Positions 1 to 53,890 of a stretch of 64,000 bases of DNA are shown piece by piece. Position 1 is the first letter of the stretch. The number at the start of each line of letters is the position of its first letter. The notes under the pieces were generated by a model, which worked only from the letters and a program-made list of their open reading frames with translations, was not told the origin of the DNA and did not search any database. The translations under genes were made by a program, and so were the position numbers. The stretch comes from Aquificota bacterium (GTDB lineage: Bacteria > Aquificota > Aquificia > Aquificales > Aquificaceae): contig JAUQQK010000005.1 of NCBI GenBank assembly GCA_030549905.1, positions 1-64,000 of the forward strand, in the 5' to 3' direction.

Positions 1-105
1 TCTTTGATAGGCATATCTTTTGCAGGAAGACCACCTCCTCATCAGGTCTTTTAGAGTTTCCATGTCCTCACTTGAAAACTCCACTCTACTGCTCAGTGTT
101 ATCAT
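1..105 (-). CDS. tnpB: TnpB-like RuvC nuclease, N-terminal 35 codons (partial)
   Basis: The first 35 codons, reading leftwards from ATG at 105, encode exactly the same residues as the first 35 residues of the TnpB at 51821. They begin MITLSSRVEF and include the single early Cys in RWSSCKRYAYQR. The two genes differ at only four bases in this stretch, all synonymous third positions, while the upstream leaders differ much more. That pattern implies selection on the protein rather than a very recent copy. TnpB proteins are RNA-guided DNA nucleases of IS200/IS605 and IS607 elements. The catalytic part of this copy is outside the window, so it is unknown whether it is intact. Confidence 0.9.
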   Translation of the reverse strand, partial: MITLSSRVEFSSEDMETLKDLMRRWSSCKRYAYQR

Positions 106-203
106 ACCACTGTCAGCCTTTCTCTTTTTTACACTTAATAGCTTTTGCTACACTTCTAAGCATAATTATACAGTTTGCTATAGTTTTTACCAACTGTTGC
201 TTG
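1..203 (-). mobile_element. Left end of a TnpB-only IS605-type element, truncated by the window edge
   Basis: This stretch matches, on the minus strand, the left end and start of the complete TnpB element at 51719-53421. The shared segment begins with AGCAACAGTTGG (minus strand, about position 201). It continues through a roughly 95-base non-coding leader of about 80% identity by eye into the tnpB start. Directly outside the element on the minus strand is AGGAGG (204-209), the same hexamer found next to the other copy. No tnpA is visible in either copy. The right end lies outside the window. Confidence 0.85.
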
Positions 204-407
204 CCTCCTTTCAAGCCTTACCTCCACTTCAGAAATTTTTTTCTCCAGTTCAATCCTCAAAGCCTTCATCTCTCCATAAAACTCTTCCTTTAATTCCGCC
301 TTCAATATTGGCTTTTGCTCCCTTGCCTTTTCCTCCACCTTGTCAGCCTTCTCCTTTTCAGGCTCCTCCTCTAATAGCCTGTAGATTTCATAGCTAAGCA
401 CCGCCAT
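204..407 (-). pseudogene. Coiled-coil protein gene truncated by TnpB element
   Basis: A reading frame starts at ATG 407 with GGAGG just upstream and two bases after the pncB stop, so it was the last gene of that operon. It encodes about 68 residues of charged, Glu/Lys-rich helix (KADKVEEKAREQKP, ELKEEFYGEMKALRIELEKK, EVRLERR) resembling small DUF1640-like coiled-coil proteins. After LERRQ the frame runs into the left end of the TnpB element and stops at 156 with element-encoded residues. The rest of the gene is presumably on the far side of the element, outside the window. Function is not known. The family resemblance is only by composition and pattern. Confidence 0.65.
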
Positions 408-16577: not shown

Positions 16578-18182
16578 CTAAAGATTATATACCTCAGAAA
16601 AATTCTTCCTTACCGCGGACTTCCAGTCCTTCATGCCCCTTTCCACTTCATCAAGCTCTTCTTCCATAAGGCTCGTAAATTTGTAATCTACCACCTTTGG
16701 AAAGTTTTCTTTTATGTAATCAAGCACTTCAAAGGCAAGCTCTGTGGGTTTAAGGTAGCCCTTCTCTTCCACCACATACCCTCTATCCTTCAGGGTTTTT
16801 ACTATGCTTGCGTAGGTGGAGGGTCTTCCAATGCCGAGCTCTTCAAGCTTTTTAACAAGGCTTCCCTCCGTGTATCTTGGCGGTGGTTGTGTCTGCCTTT
16901 TTTCAAGGGTTAGCTTCTTAGGCTTTAACAGCTCACCCCTTTTTAGCTCTGGCAGTTTTGAAAGTTCTAACTCTTCAGGGTATATGCGCAGGTATCCATC
17001 AAACTTCAGCTCCCTCCCCTTAGCCACAAATTCAAGCTTCTCACCCTTGACCTTTTCATAAACAGGCACAAGAAGGGCTTTTTTCACCTCTAAGAGAGCG
17101 GGACTTGCAAGGCTTGCAAGCGTTCTGCTGAATATGAGCCTGTATAACTCTAAGGCTTTGCCGGTAAGGTTAGGAGCCTTTAAGGATGTAGGTCTTATGC
17201 ACTCATGGGCACCCTGAGAGCTCGCTTTTTCCTTGAATTTTCTCAGCATGCCCACATAAGCCTTTCCATAAACCCTTTCAATATAGGACATAAACTCCTG
17301 AGCCTTCTGTGGGTTCATGCGGTGGCTATCTGTGCGCGGGTATGTTATATATCCCTCTTCATACAGTGCCTGAGCCAGCTTCTGCACCTGCTCTACGCTC
17401 AGCTTCAGCACTTGACTGGCAACCGCCTGAAGGCTTGCGGTTATAAAGGGCTTGGGCGGTTCTTTTGTCTCCTCCTCCTTCTCAAAGAAGACTACCTCAA
17501 AAAGGGCATCCTTTATCTTATCAAGGTAGGGCTTTGCGTTTTCTGGCTTTTCAAACCTGTAGTCCCAGACGGCGTAGAATTCCACACCATCCTTCTCAAA
17601 AACAGCCTTTATGTAGTAATATTCCTTTCTTTTAAAGTTCATTATCTCAAGCTCCCTCTCCACCACAAGCCTTAAGGCTGGCGACTGGACCCTTCCCACA
17701 GAAAGGCTTCTCTTTCTCAAAGCCTTCCATAAGAAGGGTGAAAGCTTATAACCAATAAGCCTGTCAAGAACTCTTCTGGCAAACTGAGCATGTACAAGGT
17801 TTGTGTTTACATCTCCAGCCTTTTCAATGGATTCTTTTATACTGTTGGGGGTTATCTCATAAAAAACAGCCCTTTTTACAGGCTTTTTGAGCTTTTCAAG
17901 CTCTCTTTTTACAAAAAAGGCTATGGCTTCTCCTTCCCTGTCCGGGTCTGTGCCTATGTATATCTCCTGTGCCCTGTTAGCCAGACTCTTAACCTGTTCC
18001 ATAAGCTTTTTCTTCCCCCTTACCCATACAAAGGTGGGCTTTAGTGTTTCTTCATCTACACCCAAAGAGTCAGGCGGTAGGTCCTTTATATGCCCAAGAG
18101 TGGCTTTTACTATCCAGCCCTTTCCTAAATACTTGGCTATAGTCTTTGCCTTTGTTGGGCTTTCCACTATGAAGAGCTTCAT
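16578..18182 (-). CDS. topA: DNA topoisomerase I (type IA), short form
   Basis: This type IA topoisomerase relaxes negative supercoils. The N-terminal TOPRIM domain has E7 in FIVESPTKAKT and GTDPDREGEA (D79, D81, E83). The catalytic Tyr is Y281 in GYITYPRTDS. At 534 residues it ends right after the gate domains and lacks the C-terminal Cys4 zinc ribbons of the E. coli enzyme; only one Cys is seen (GAHECIRPTS). Short forms are known in Aquificales. The start at 18182 has TATATT 8 bases upstream and no Shine-Dalgarno sequence, sharing an AT-rich element with the divergent FBP gene. Confidence 0.94.
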   Translation of the reverse strand: MKLFIVESPTKAKTIAKYLGKGWIVKATLGHIKDLPPDSLGVDEETLKPTFVWVRGKKKLMEQVKSLANRAQEIYIGTDPDREGEAIAFFVKRELEKLKKPVKRAVFYEITPNSIKESIEKAGDVNTNLVHAQFARRVLDRLIGYKLSPFLWKALRKRSLSVGRVQSPALRLVVERELEIMNFKRKEYYYIKAVFEKDGVEFYAVWDYRFEKPENAKPYLDKIKDALFEVVFFEKEEETKEPPKPFITASLQAVASQVLKLSVEQVQKLAQALYEEGYITYPRTDSHRMNPQKAQEFMSYIERVYGKAYVGMLRKFKEKASSQGAHECIRPTSLKAPNLTGKALELYRLIFSRTLASLASPALLEVKKALLVPVYEKVKGEKLEFVAKGRELKFDGYLRIYPEELELSKLPELKRGELLKPKKLTLEKRQTQPPPRYTEGSLVKKLEELGIGRPSTYASIVKTLKDRGYVVEEKGYLKPTELAFEVLDYIKENFPKVVDYKFTSLMEEELDEVERGMKDWKSAVRKNFSEVYNL

Positions 18183-51656: not shown

Positions 51657-51722
51657 ATGGGGTGGTTAATAAGAAGTTTATTGGGCATGCTGGCTTTTAG
51701 TTTAGTCTTTTCAGGAGGTTAG
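51657..51722 (+). pseudogene. 5' fragment of the PEBP gene: signal peptide interrupted by the TnpB element
   Basis: From ATG 51657 the frame encodes a signal peptide-like segment (MGWLIRSLLG, then MLAFSLVFSGG) and stops at TAG 51720-51722. That stop is formed where the element begins after AGGAGG (51713-51718). If the element (about 51719-53421) is removed, the frame continues as SGGKSMKVISAAF into the PEBP domain at 53429. The leaderless-type promoter lies upstream. It is therefore read as the 5' part of that gene, disrupted by insertion. Confidence 0.6.
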
Positions 51723-51820
51723 CAACAGTTGGCAAAAATTGTAACAAAGCGTATATTTATGCTTGAAGTGTAGCGAATGTTATTAAGTGTAAAAAAGATA
51801 AAGGAAGGGCTGACAGTAGC

Positions 51821-53416
51821 ATGATAACCCTAAGTAGTAGAGTTGAGTTTTCAAGTGAGGACATGGAAACTCTAAAAGACCTGATGAGGAGGTGGTCTTC
51901 CTGCAAAAGATATGCCTATCAAAGACTGTTGGAGGGAGAAGAAAGAAGAGAACTTAAGAAAAGGCTACAGGCTATGTTTGGACTAAACTCAAGGTATGTG
52001 GATGATGCCATATTCAGGGCGCAGGAAGTTTTAAAAGCCTGTAAAGAAAAGAGGCAAAACCCTAAGAAGGTTATCTTTGGTGGAAGAAGTCTTTTTGAAA
52101 AGCTTAAGAAAAACCATCTTCAAGGAAAGAAAAGACAAGAACTAAAAAGACAGTGGGAAGAGAAAAGGAAATACAGGCTTTATTCAAGAGGAGACAGGTC
52201 AAAGCAAGGAAATTTAAACATAAGGTTATTACTTGAAGAAGATAGCATAAAACTCAGGGTAAGCGTAGGAAACCGACGATGGATAACAGGCAAAGTCTAT
52301 AGGAAAGTGTCAAGAGAAAAAGACAAATGGATAGACTTTATCTGGAGCTTACAGGTAGCAGAAAAGACTAAGGACTATTTTCCTTACAGCGTGGAGCTTT
52401 TCATAAAAGACAGCAAGGTCTATGCACATATAAGCTATGAGGAAAGAATTGCAGAAACGACGATTACAAAAGACAGTGGAGTTATAGGCATAGACATAAA
52501 CGGGTCTCCTTTTCATATTGCCTTGACAGAGGTAGAAAAGGACGGAAACCTTTTAAGCTATCAGTCCATATCTTTACATGAGCTTGTTGGTAAGAAAAGA
52601 GAGCAAAGAGAATATATGGCATGGCATATAGCACACAGGATAACAGACATGGCATTAGAAAGAAGAAGAGCCATAGCCATAGAAAGGCTGGCAGGAATGC
52701 CAAAAGGCTATAGAGGAGATGGAAGAGCAAAACTAAGGAAAAGATTTCATCAATGGGCTTACAGGAGCATACTTGAGAAGATAAAGGTCTTAGCCAGGAG
52801 GAAAGGCATAGAGTTTATAGAAGTAAGTCCATCTTACACATCAGTTATAGGCTCACTCAAGTATGCACCCATGTATAACATAGATAAGGATACTGCAGGT
52901 GCGTATGTGATAGGAAGAAGGGCTTTAGGATTTAAGGAGAAGTTGCCTAAAAATTACTTGAAACTTCTTTCAAGAGAGGAGTTTATCAGGTATAGCCTTA
53001 GTGAGCTGAAAGAGAAGAAGCAGGGACTTAAGGAGAAGTTGAAAAAAGAGGGAAACAAGTATAAGAGGAATGCCTTAAAGACAGAGATATCAAAGCTTAA
53101 CAAAGATATCAAGCTTTTAGTGCATTTACTTTCAAGCCTTGAGAGCGAGCCAGAGACCCGAGAGCCTGCCAACCTGTGGAAGGAGCAGGTGAGGGAAGAG
53201 GTGAAAACCTCTTACAAACTCTGGCAAGTTCTCAGGGTAGCCTTCACATTTCCTGTCCTTGGGAAATCCTTTGTCAGGGATTTCTCTCCGCTAAAACCTA
53301 TACTTGTGGATTGGGGCAGGAGTGTGAGAAGGTTAGCTCCTATGCCTGGTGTAGGGGCTATGGCAAGTAGCATGCCTGAAACTGACCAAAAGTGTAGTTT
53401 GATACACTTTTGGTAA
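51821..53416 (+). CDS. tnpB: TnpB-like RNA-guided nuclease without a zinc ribbon, with long C-terminal extension
   Basis: This 531-residue protein has TnpB-type RuvC motifs: D225 in GVIGIDING (RuvC I), E288 in AIAIERLAG (RuvC II) and D355/D357 in NIDKDTAGAYVIGRRALG (RuvC III). All catalytic positions are kept. The region before RuvC III, VSPSYTSVIGSLKYAPMY, lacks the usual CxxC...CxxC. Only three Cys exist in the protein (28, 64, 525). After RuvC III there are about 165 extra residues, with a Lys/Glu coiled coil (380-440), where typical TnpB ends within a few tens of residues. The N-terminus is identical to the partial copy at 1-105. The last 30 coding bases form a perfect hairpin. No tnpA is present. 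Confidence 0.9.
   Translation: MITLSSRVEFSSEDMETLKDLMRRWSSCKRYAYQRLLEGEERRELKKRLQAMFGLNSRYVDDAIFRAQEVLKACKEKRQNPKKVIFGGRSLFEKLKKNHLQGKKRQELKRQWEEKRKYRLYSRGDRSKQGNLNIRLLLEEDSIKLRVSVGNRRWITGKVYRKVSREKDKWIDFIWSLQVAEKTKDYFPYSVELFIKDSKVYAHISYEERIAETTITKDSGVIGIDINGSPFHIALTEVEKDGNLLSYQSISLHELVGKKREQREYMAWHIAHRITDMALERRRAIAIERLAGMPKGYRGDGRAKLRKRFHQWAYRSILEKIKVLARRKGIEFIEVSPSYTSVIGSLKYAPMYNIDKDTAGAYVIGRRALGFKEKLPKNYLKLLSREEFIRYSLSELKEKKQGLKEKLKKEGNKYKRNALKTEISKLNKDIKLLVHLLSSLESEPETREPANLWKEQVREEVKTSYKLWQVLRVAFTFPVLGKSFVRDFSPLKPILVDWGRSVRRLAPMPGVGAMASSMPETDQKCSLIHFW
53385..53414 (+). repeat. Perfect 12-bp hairpin at the right end of the TnpB element
   Basis: ACCAAAAGTGTA and TACACTTTTGGT pair perfectly around the loop GTTTGA. 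The hairpin ends at the first base of the tnpB stop codon. In IS605 elements a subterminal right-end hairpin and the guide-RNA scaffold lie here. No T run follows, so it is not an ordinary terminator. Confidence 0.6.
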
Positions 53417-53428
53417 CCAGGGAAAAGC

Positions 53429-53890
53429 ATGAAGGTGATAAGCGCAGCCTTTAAGGAAGGGGAGTTAATACCAAGGCAGTATACCTGTGAAGGTAAGGAT
53501 GTTCCTCCACCCATAAGTTGGCAGGATTTCCCGCAGGAAGCCAAATCCTTCGTCCTTATCATGGATGACCCAGATGCACCGGCTGGTACCTTTACTCACT
53601 GGGTTGTTTACGATATACCTTCAAGCGTGAGCAGGCTTGAAGAAAACTTTCCAAAGGTGAAGGAACATATGGGTATAAAGCAGGGCATGAACGATTTTGG
53701 TCGGGTTGGCTATGGTGGTCCCTGTCCACCGCGCGGACATGGTTATCACAGATACTTCTTCAAGGTGTATGCACTGAGCGTGGCAAGCCTGAACCTTCCC
53801 GCAGGAGCCAGCAGAAGAGATGTGGAGAAGGCTATGGCTGGTAAGGTGCTGGCACAGGCACAGCTAATGGGCAGGTATAAAAGGGATTAG
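53429..53890 (+). CDS. YbhB/YbcL-type PEBP-family protein (mature domain)
   Basis: This 153-residue phosphatidylethanolamine-binding/Raf-kinase-inhibitor-like protein starts MKVISAAFKEGELIPRQYTC and has the ligand pocket motifs DDPDAPAGTFTHW and GYGGPCPPRGHGYHRYFF. It is complete as a domain and may still be translated from ATG 53429, behind the element (GGGAAAAGC gives a weak ribosome-binding site). It has lost the signal peptide encoded at 51657 if that fragment belongs to it, so the product would be cytoplasmic. The bacterial family's ligand is unknown. Its stop abuts the lipA stop on the other strand. Confidence 0.87.
   Translation: MKVISAAFKEGELIPRQYTCEGKDVPPPISWQDFPQEAKSFVLIMDDPDAPAGTFTHWVVYDIPSSVSRLEENFPKVKEHMGIKQGMNDFGRVGYGGPCPPRGHGYHRYFFKVYALSVASLNLPAGASRRDVEKAMAGKVLAQAQLMGRYKRD

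What the first reader, a model, noticed from the sequence alone, without database searches (positions are those of the whole stretch)
51821..53416. TnpB variant that keeps the RuvC triad but lacks the zinc ribbon and has a ~165-residue C-terminal extension
Seen: D225, E288 and D355/D357 are in the right contexts, but the segment between RuvC II and III (YTSVIGSLKYAPMY) has no CxxC, and only three Cys exist in 531 residues. After RuvC III a long Lys/Glu coiled-coil region follows. Known: classical IS605 TnpB proteins have a zinc ribbon inserted in RuvC and end soon after RuvC III. Inference: this is a separate thermophile TnpB-like lineage, possibly with a different guide-RNA scaffold or partner.
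Basis: partly seen in the sequence, partly recalled or inferred. Interest (0 to 1): 0.72.

Follow-up and report, generated by a model that had tools for sequence, protein, structure and literature searches.

The report
Zinc-free TnpB on an IS607 relic
A hot-spring bacterium carries several copies of a small jumping element whose predicted RNA-guided DNA cutter (TnpB) has lost the usual zinc-binding part but kept its cutting residues; the end of its gene doubles as the guide-RNA scaffold, and the element lands precisely at the ribosome-binding sites of other genes.

Summary
ORF 51821-53416 (531 aa) keeps D225, E288 and D357, invariant in 19 diverse relatives, and has no zinc ribbon: 13 residues replace it. 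It is not an oddity. It belongs to a widespread zinc-less TnpB clade (45 of 136 Aquificota genomes; Thermus; Bacillota; viral contigs), which NCBI labels only 'TnpB-related'. The window copy is an IS607-type element, not IS605: AGGAGG | 51719-53421 | ACCAGG, with a remnant of the IS607 serine-transposase gene in its left end.

The '165-residue extension' is two things. Residues ~363-437 are a protein-constrained helical region. From codon ~438 on, codon periodicity is lost and the DNA is constrained as a structured RNA (38 of 57 pairs with compensatory changes, including a pseudoknot): the predicted omegaRNA scaffold, read through by the ORF. A 355-bp element elsewhere in the genome keeps only the left end plus this part, starting at codon 438.

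Insertion sites are Shine-Dalgarno sequences: 44 of 53 copies sit just upstream of a start codon, and empty coxA and pstB sites in relatives carry it. AGGAG is also the published TAM of characterised IS607 TnpBs. Best reading: a new zinc-less IS607 TnpB variant, RNA-guided nuclease. Cleavage is inferred, not shown.

The parts
51713..51718 (+). AGGAGG: target motif / predicted TAM, the Shine-Dalgarno sequence of the downstream gene; its last GG is the predicted IS607 crossover core
   Evidence: GGAGG precedes the left end in nearly all resolved copies and GGAGG (or a near variant) is present in uninterrupted coxA and pstB loci of relatives
51719..53421 (+). The mobile element (tnpA-deleted IS607 derivative), left end to right end ...GGTAACCAGG
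   Evidence: Copy-to-copy alignments end at these boundaries; C15 empty-site comparison
51729..51757 (+). Promoter-like TTGGCA-N17-TATATT inside the left end
   Evidence: 10 of 12 matches; consensus match only
51768..51804 (+). Remnant of the first codons of an IS607 tnpA (serine transposase)
   Evidence: Aligns with the intact tnpA start of the sister elements L061 and L062, whose TnpA scores 230.8 bits to NF033518 transpos_IS607, cut-off 110
51821..53416 (+). tnpB ORF, 531 aa, zinc-less, RuvC triad D225/E288/D357
52844..52882 (+). Codons 342-354: 13 residues (VIGSLKYAPMYNI) replacing the zinc ribbon between RuvC-II and RuvC-III
   Evidence: TNB model matched only over positions 1-29 of 60
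52907..53131 (+). Codons 363-437: helical C-terminal region under protein-level constraint
   Evidence: Third-position excess, 50 of 95 differences in codons 361-437; confident helices at 377-439
53134..53421 (+). Predicted omegaRNA scaffold region overlapping the last ~94 codons of tnpB
   Evidence: The C15 element keeps this part; loss of codon periodicity; covariation; fold z-score -5.7
53197..53213 (+). RNA helix P1 (AAGAGGU/ACCUCUU)
53261..53286 (+). RNA helix P2 (GGGAAAUCC/GGGAUUUCUC)
   Evidence: 6 of 8 pairs with compensatory changes
53336..53358 (+). RNA helix P4 (GCUCCUA/UAGGGGC)
   Evidence: 97% of cells paired, 4 pairs with compensatory changes
53362..53376 (+). Shortened P5 hairpin; the P6/P7 pseudoknot of the long scaffold is deleted on both strands here
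   Evidence: Alignment of the window, C7, C23 and L032 with C13, C9 and C15
53386..53413 (+). Terminal hairpin P8 (CCAAAAGUGUA/UACACUUUUGG)
53422..53441 (+). Predicted guide (first 20 nt after ACCAGG), running into the start of the downstream gene
   Evidence: Inferred from the invariant ACCAGG end followed by unrelated flanks; the 20-nt length is the optimum reported for ISFba1 (PMC11061315)
53429..53890 (+). Host gene (153 aa, YbhB/PEBP-like by my reading) whose Shine-Dalgarno was separated from its ATG by the insertion
   Evidence: start codon 7 nt after the right end
1..209 (-). Left end of a further copy, cut at the contig/window edge

Best explanation
A tnpA-deleted IS607-type element carries a zinc-ribbon-less TnpB that most likely works as an omegaRNA-guided DNA endonuclease. 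Transcription from the left end runs through tnpB into the right end. The last ~290 nt, which overlap tnpB codons 438-531, fold into the omegaRNA scaffold, and the guide is the host sequence just after ACCAGG (inferred). The guide matches the empty target allele, whose TAM is the Shine-Dalgarno AGGAG(G). Cutting that allele would let the element be copied back by recombination, as proposed for other TnpBs (inferred). The zinc ribbon (TNB) was replaced in this clade by a conserved 13-residue segment. The functional protein is probably residues 1 to ~437 (to ~500 at most). Shown here: anatomy, target sites, RNA covariation and triad conservation. Inferred: RNP formation, cleavage, and mobilisation by an IS607 TnpA supplied in trans.
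For: Triad invariant. The AlphaFold2 model (pLDDT 80) has Cas12k, Cas12f and the ISFba1 TnpB complex (8iaz) among its nearest solved folds. The IS607 tnpA remnant aligns with intact sister elements whose TnpA is a confident IS607 transposase. Empty sites and start-codon adjacency fix the target as the Shine-Dalgarno. AGGAG is the experimentally determined TAM for 18 of 22 strains with characterised IS607 TnpBs (PMC11061315). RNA: 87% of cells paired against 74% in shuffles, and 262 double-changed cells against 91 (0 of 500 shuffles as high). Codon-position constraint stops at codon ~438, the point where the internally deleted C15 copy starts. Multi-copy elements with 87-89% identical proteins under purifying selection suggest an active protein.
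Against: No nuclease or RNA data exist for this clade in what I could search. The window copy has the short scaffold without the pseudoknot, so its own omegaRNA could be impaired. The only IS607 TnpA found in this genome belongs to a zinc-type TnpB element, so mobility of this copy is uncertain. Residues 453-500 still show some protein-type conservation in the wider family, so the protein/RNA boundary is not sharp. The window protein scores below the curated cut-off of the guided TnpB model (51 against 100 bits).
Confidence: 0.78

Rival explanations
1. An RNA-guided binder rather than a cutter: the RNP binds the Shine-Dalgarno plus start region of target genes and represses them, like the nuclease-dead TldR or Cas12m/Cas12k, because loss of the zinc ribbon abolished target-strand loading.
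For: The TNB/zinc region is missing; the closest solved fold is Cas12k, a naturally nuclease-dead effector; binding at ribosome-binding sites would be an effective way to block expression.
Against: D225, E288 and D357 are invariant in all 19 members, unlike nuclease-dead families. Cas12k was not detected by sequence profile. Copies lie inside mobile elements rather than at fixed host loci.
Confidence: 0.12
2. A decaying, non-functional relic: the tnpA deletion, the lost zinc ribbon and the lost pseudoknot reflect degeneration.
For: tnpA is deleted; truncated copies exist; the window scaffold has lost P6/P7.
Against: Purifying selection on tnpB between copies (e.g. 27/17/62 differences at positions 1/2/3 over codons 1-360). 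The zinc-less form is shared by the whole clade and by copies with intact TnpA. The short scaffold is shared by several copies, including one with an intact IS607 TnpA (L032/L061), with both strands of the helices lost together.
Confidence: 0.1
3. The C-terminal 165 residues are throughout a dedicated new protein domain, for example one that binds a partner or stabilises the RNP, with no RNA role.
For: Confident helices at 377-439 and a weaker helix at 455-480; protein-type conservation persists in 453-500 in distant members.
Against: No codon periodicity after codon 438 among close copies (17 of 53 third-position differences, p = 0.0002 against codons 1-360). The same DNA is read in different frames in relatives (EIPPAG versus KYRQLG). 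Strong RNA covariation. Several members stop early inside this region (L042, L043).
Confidence: 0.08

Closest known systems
IS607 TnpBs guided by RAGATH-18-derived RNA (ISFba1 TnpB, PDB 8iaz; PMC11061315)
   Same: IS607 element, RuvC-type TnpB, right-end RNA with guide at the element end, AGGAG TAM
   Different: ISFba1 is 387 aa; here about 500 aa or more with a C-terminal helical region, no zinc ribbon, and an RNA that does not hit any Rfam family. Fold similarity to 8iaz is modest (TM 0.29 by query, 0.38 by target)
ISDra2 / IS200-IS605 TnpB (Karvelis 2021, PMC8612924)
   Same: RuvC triad; guide expected immediately after the element's right end (general knowledge of the family)
   Different: Zinc ribbon and T-rich TAM there (general knowledge); here IS607 ends, no Y1 TnpA, AGGAG-type target, no zinc ribbon
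TIGR01765/TIGR01766 'TnpB-related' proteins (NCBIfam)
   Same: The protein and all 19 aligned relatives hit both models; this is the family's database label
   Different: The label carries no statement on zinc loss, omegaRNA, TAM or element type
TnpB-CRISPR loci of Thermus phages Lalka8/27a/27b (PMC11437467)
   Same: Same zinc-less clade (L068; 40% identity over residues 1-387)
   Different: Phage locus next to a short CRISPR-like array; the authors propose a type V CRISPR-Cas system; no IS607 ends were resolved there
Cas12k (V-K CAST effector)
   Same: Top Foldseek match of the model (7n3o, 7pla)
   Different: Not found by sequence profile up to E = 1; Cas12k is nuclease-dead and CRISPR-associated (general knowledge); here the triad is intact and no CRISPR array was seen

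Membership tests
TnpB (OMEGA nuclease) | RuvC D-E-D triad in RuvC-I/II/III contexts | tested here: met
   D225, E288 and D357 invariant in 19 relatives
TnpB (OMEGA nuclease) | Zinc ribbon (TNB) between RuvC-II and RuvC-III; usual, not universal | tested here: not met
   No CxxC; TNB model matched only 1-29/60, below cut-off
TnpB (OMEGA nuclease) | Score above the curated guided_TnpB cut-off (NF040570) | tested here: not met
   51.3 bits against a cut-off of 100
TnpB (OMEGA nuclease) | Structured right-end RNA with guide after the element end | tested here: met
   Covariation with 38 double-changed pairs; near-invariant ACCAGG followed by unrelated flanks; expression not tested
TnpB (OMEGA nuclease) | RNA-guided DNA cleavage | not testable with these tools
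   needs biochemistry
IS607 family element | Serine transposase TnpA upstream of tnpB | tested here: met
   Intact and confident in sister elements L061/L062; only a remnant in the window copy
IS607 family element | GG core at both ends, no terminal inverted repeat, no target duplication beyond the core | tested here: met
   ...GGAGG | element ...CCAGG |; coxA empty sites AGGAGG-N7-ATG or similar against C15
IS200/IS605 element | Y1 transposase TnpA | tested here: not met
   No Y1_Tnp match in the whole genome assembly
RAGATH-18-guided IS607 TnpB | RAGATH-18 RNA motif at the right end | tested here: inconclusive
   No Rfam match at E<=1 in the window beyond two sub-threshold chance hits, and none at E<=0.1 in four relatives; presence of RAGATH-18 in the library was not verified separately
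RAGATH-18-guided IS607 TnpB | AGGAG TAM next to the left end | tested here: met
   for the genomic motif; TAM function itself untested
TldR (nuclease-dead TnpB-like regulator) | Degenerate RuvC triad | tested here: not met
Type V CRISPR-Cas effector | Adjacent CRISPR array or cas genes | tested here: not met
   Flanking ORFs are a ribosomal protein L20-like and a YbhB-like gene (my reading); the phage relative L068 does have a CRISPR-like array

The most novel reading that the evidence does not exclude
A large zinc-free TnpB clade whose nucleases use a purpose-evolved 13-residue replacement of the TNB domain, whose gene 3' ends are dual-coded as omegaRNA, and which aims insertions at ribosome-binding sites. 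The clade supports omegaRNA-only satellite elements in trans (C15) and has also moved onto a second, unrelated transposon type with terminal inverted repeats and 9-bp target duplications.
Probability: 0.4. Interest if true: 0.8.

Novelty: new variant of a known kind. Interest (0 to 1): 0.62.

Why it matters
Zinc-ribbon (TNB) loss with an intact RuvC triad would show that this domain is dispensable for a TnpB nuclease and would give a thermostable, zinc-independent scaffold with a fixed AGGAG-type TAM. The natural deletions (omegaRNA-only element, pseudoknot-less scaffold, coiled-coil-less members) map the minimal protein and RNA without mutagenesis. Targeting of Shine-Dalgarno sites explains how such elements can spread widely while placing themselves between the ribosome-binding site and start codon of housekeeping genes such as coxA and pstB.

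Tried and rejected
Chance ORF or assembly artefact: rejected (several full copies in the genome and copies in 45 of 136 genomes of the phylum). IS605 element: rejected, no Y1 transposase. Nuclease-dead regulator: triad invariant. Whole extension as a protein domain: rejected beyond ~codon 438. Known Rfam RNA: none; the MIR169_2 and SNORD37 matches are far below gathering scores and taken as chance. Cas12k ancestry: suggested by fold only, not by sequence profiles. KapB and DUF2192 Pfam hits over 355-430 are weak helical matches and were not used. Empty site of the window insertion itself: no orthologue with conserved upstream sequence found in the genus, so coxA and pstB were used instead. Viral contigs searched with the single protein gave nothing; the family alignment gave 21 loci. 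Autonomous element with the same TIRs in G052: seven further TIR-like sites examined, no transposase seen by eye. A literature search for zinc loss in TnpB found no description of this clade.

Full report
Observation. The ORF at 51821-53416 is real and reads as described: 531 aa, three Cys, no CxxC. D225, E288 and D357 are invariant in a 19-member alignment; D355 is not. The residues around the missing ribbon are themselves conserved: P337, T340, S341, K347, Y348 and P350 are invariant. Other TnpBs in the same genome do have the ribbon (L020-L022). NCBIfam places the protein in TIGR01766 and TIGR01765 above cut-off, but below the guided_TnpB cut-off; all 19 relatives hit the same models.

Distribution. 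Within the genome there are full copies on C7, C23 and C13 and partial ones on C9, C14, C15 and C27. In the phylum, 45 of 136 genomes match at E<=1e-20, some with 5-10 copies. Thermus plasmids and phages carry homologues at about 42% identity. More distant zinc-less relatives occur in Peptoclostridium (directly behind an IS607 transposase), Ammonifex, Thermaerobacter, a Klebsiella plasmid and viral contigs. In a small tree, zinc-bearing sequences group apart from the zinc-less ones (0.83 for the zinc group, 0.999 on the branch that joins it with the Campylobacter phage ISCaje4 sequence, itself zinc-less; midpoint rooting puts that sequence on the zinc-less side). Sampling was seeded by a zinc-less query, so this is indicative only.

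Element. Copy alignments give sharp ends: AGGAGG | TTAGCAACAGTTG ... GGTAACCAGG |. Between the left end and tnpB the window copy keeps about 12 codons of an IS607 tnpA. Sister elements L061 and L062 carry the intact tnpA overlapping tnpB, a confident IS607 transposase (230.8 bits, cut-off 110). The window element is therefore a tnpA-deleted IS607 derivative. The only serine transposase found in this genome is an IS607 TnpA that sits before a zinc-type TnpB (the adjacency is read from the sequence). No Y1 transposase was found.

Target. Of 39 left ends I could resolve by inspection, about 36 are preceded by GGAGG. Of 53 right ends, 44 are followed within 2-18 nt by a start codon opening an ORF of at least 50 codons or running off the sequence, against a background of 17.7% (binomial p about 7e-25; copies are not fully independent). 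In relatives lacking the insertion, coxA reads for example AAAAAGGAGGTGTAACC-ATG where C15 has AAAAAGGAGG-[element]-TAGCACC-ATG; pstB shows the same pattern. So the target is the Shine-Dalgarno and it lies outside the element. Ren et al. 2024 found 5'-AGGAG as TAM for 18 of 22 strains with IS607 TnpBs and noted AG-rich TAMs next to left ends (PMC11061315). The word beginning 'ribosom' does not occur in its main text.

C-terminal extension. Between close copies, third-position differences dominate in codons 1-360 (293 of 500) and 361-437 (50 of 95), but not in 438-500 (17 of 53, the value expected without codon constraint). These counts share the window sequence; three independent pairs show the same trend. 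In distant relatives, codon identity given the same amino acid rises from about 0.58 to 0.81 in the last block, and the same nucleotides are read in different frames. In 453-500 some protein-type conservation remains. AlphaFold2 gives confident helices at 377-439 and low confidence at 441-463 and 500-531. The C15 copy is 355 bp long and contains only the left end and the part from codon 438.

RNA. In a 36-sequence alignment of this region, a structure that I named by eye, with a pseudoknot (P6 CCGCC/GGCGG and P7 GCUGGGG/CCCCAGC inside the P5 loop), has 87% paired cells, 38 of 57 pairs with compensatory change and a covariation score of 0.324 against 0.150 in shuffles (0 of 500); sliding the partners lowers all measures. 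Relatedness of the sequences inflates such counts, but P7 alone shows six pairs with double changes and 99.6% pairing. The window RNA folds at -107.5 kcal/mol, z = -5.7. Window, C7, C23 and L032 lack both strands of P6 and P7 at once, leaving a closed P5 hairpin; a Thermus copy (L065) has a similarly short end. Rfam has no match.

Fold. Nearest solved structures are Cas12k, Cas12f, Cas12g and ISFba1 TnpB, all at TM about 0.2-0.5. Sequence profiles find Cas12f/TnpB-type proteins but not Cas12k.

Mechanism. The most likely working is an omegaRNA-guided nuclease with an AGGAG-type TAM, its guide being the leader and start of the host gene, protecting the element by cutting empty alleles. TnpB processing its own mRNA into omegaRNA is published for other members (PMC10278001). 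RNP formation and cleavage are inferred. Database silence is limited to what was searched: the main diversity paper on TnpB/Cas12 (PMC10691335) is not held, so earlier notice of zinc loss in this clade cannot be excluded.

Noticed in passing
L057, L086, L106, L108, L114, L118, L119 (and about 20 similar loci, genera g1, g4, g5, g8): The same zinc-less TnpB also rides on elements with terminal inverted repeats (GAGGCTGTTCTAAAAAT...ATTTTTAGAACAGCCTC); seven have exact 9-bp target duplications, TnpB is the only gene seen, and the right end keeps only the 5' part of the omegaRNA scaffold. Movement by a DDE-type transposase in trans is inferred; none was seen in G052.
   Followed up: partly
L123 (G000:C15, about 16900-17250, minus strand): A 355-bp element with left end plus omegaRNA region only, inserted between Shine-Dalgarno and ATG of coxA: a candidate omegaRNA-only satellite.
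   Followed up: partly
L068 3172-3261 (Thermus phage Lalka27a): Zinc-less TnpB followed by a CRISPR-like repeat array; [quoted passage not shown]
   Followed up: partly
L069, L070, L071, L141-L147, L174: In Bacillota, viral and a Klebsiella-plasmid zinc-less relatives the RuvC-III Asp is replaced by His (e.g. LSVHEAASFAIGRRGLG), reminiscent of the His in the Cas9 RuvC site (general knowledge).
   Followed up: no
L065 (Thermus thermophilus SG0.5JP17-16 plasmid): A Thermus copy also has a short right end without the P5-P7 pseudoknot, suggesting pseudoknot loss happened more than once.
   Followed up: no
G000:C7:664-1269 region (L167): The only IS607 TnpA found in this genome lies directly before a zinc-type TnpB, so two IS607 lineages coexist here.
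   Followed up: partly
L175 (Campylobacter phage CP220, ISCaje4): ISCaje4 TnpB also lacks a zinc ribbon (QPQYSSFIGNLVYRVHQLPDYVLASIEIGRRG) and follows a short resolvase-like ORF.
   Followed up: no
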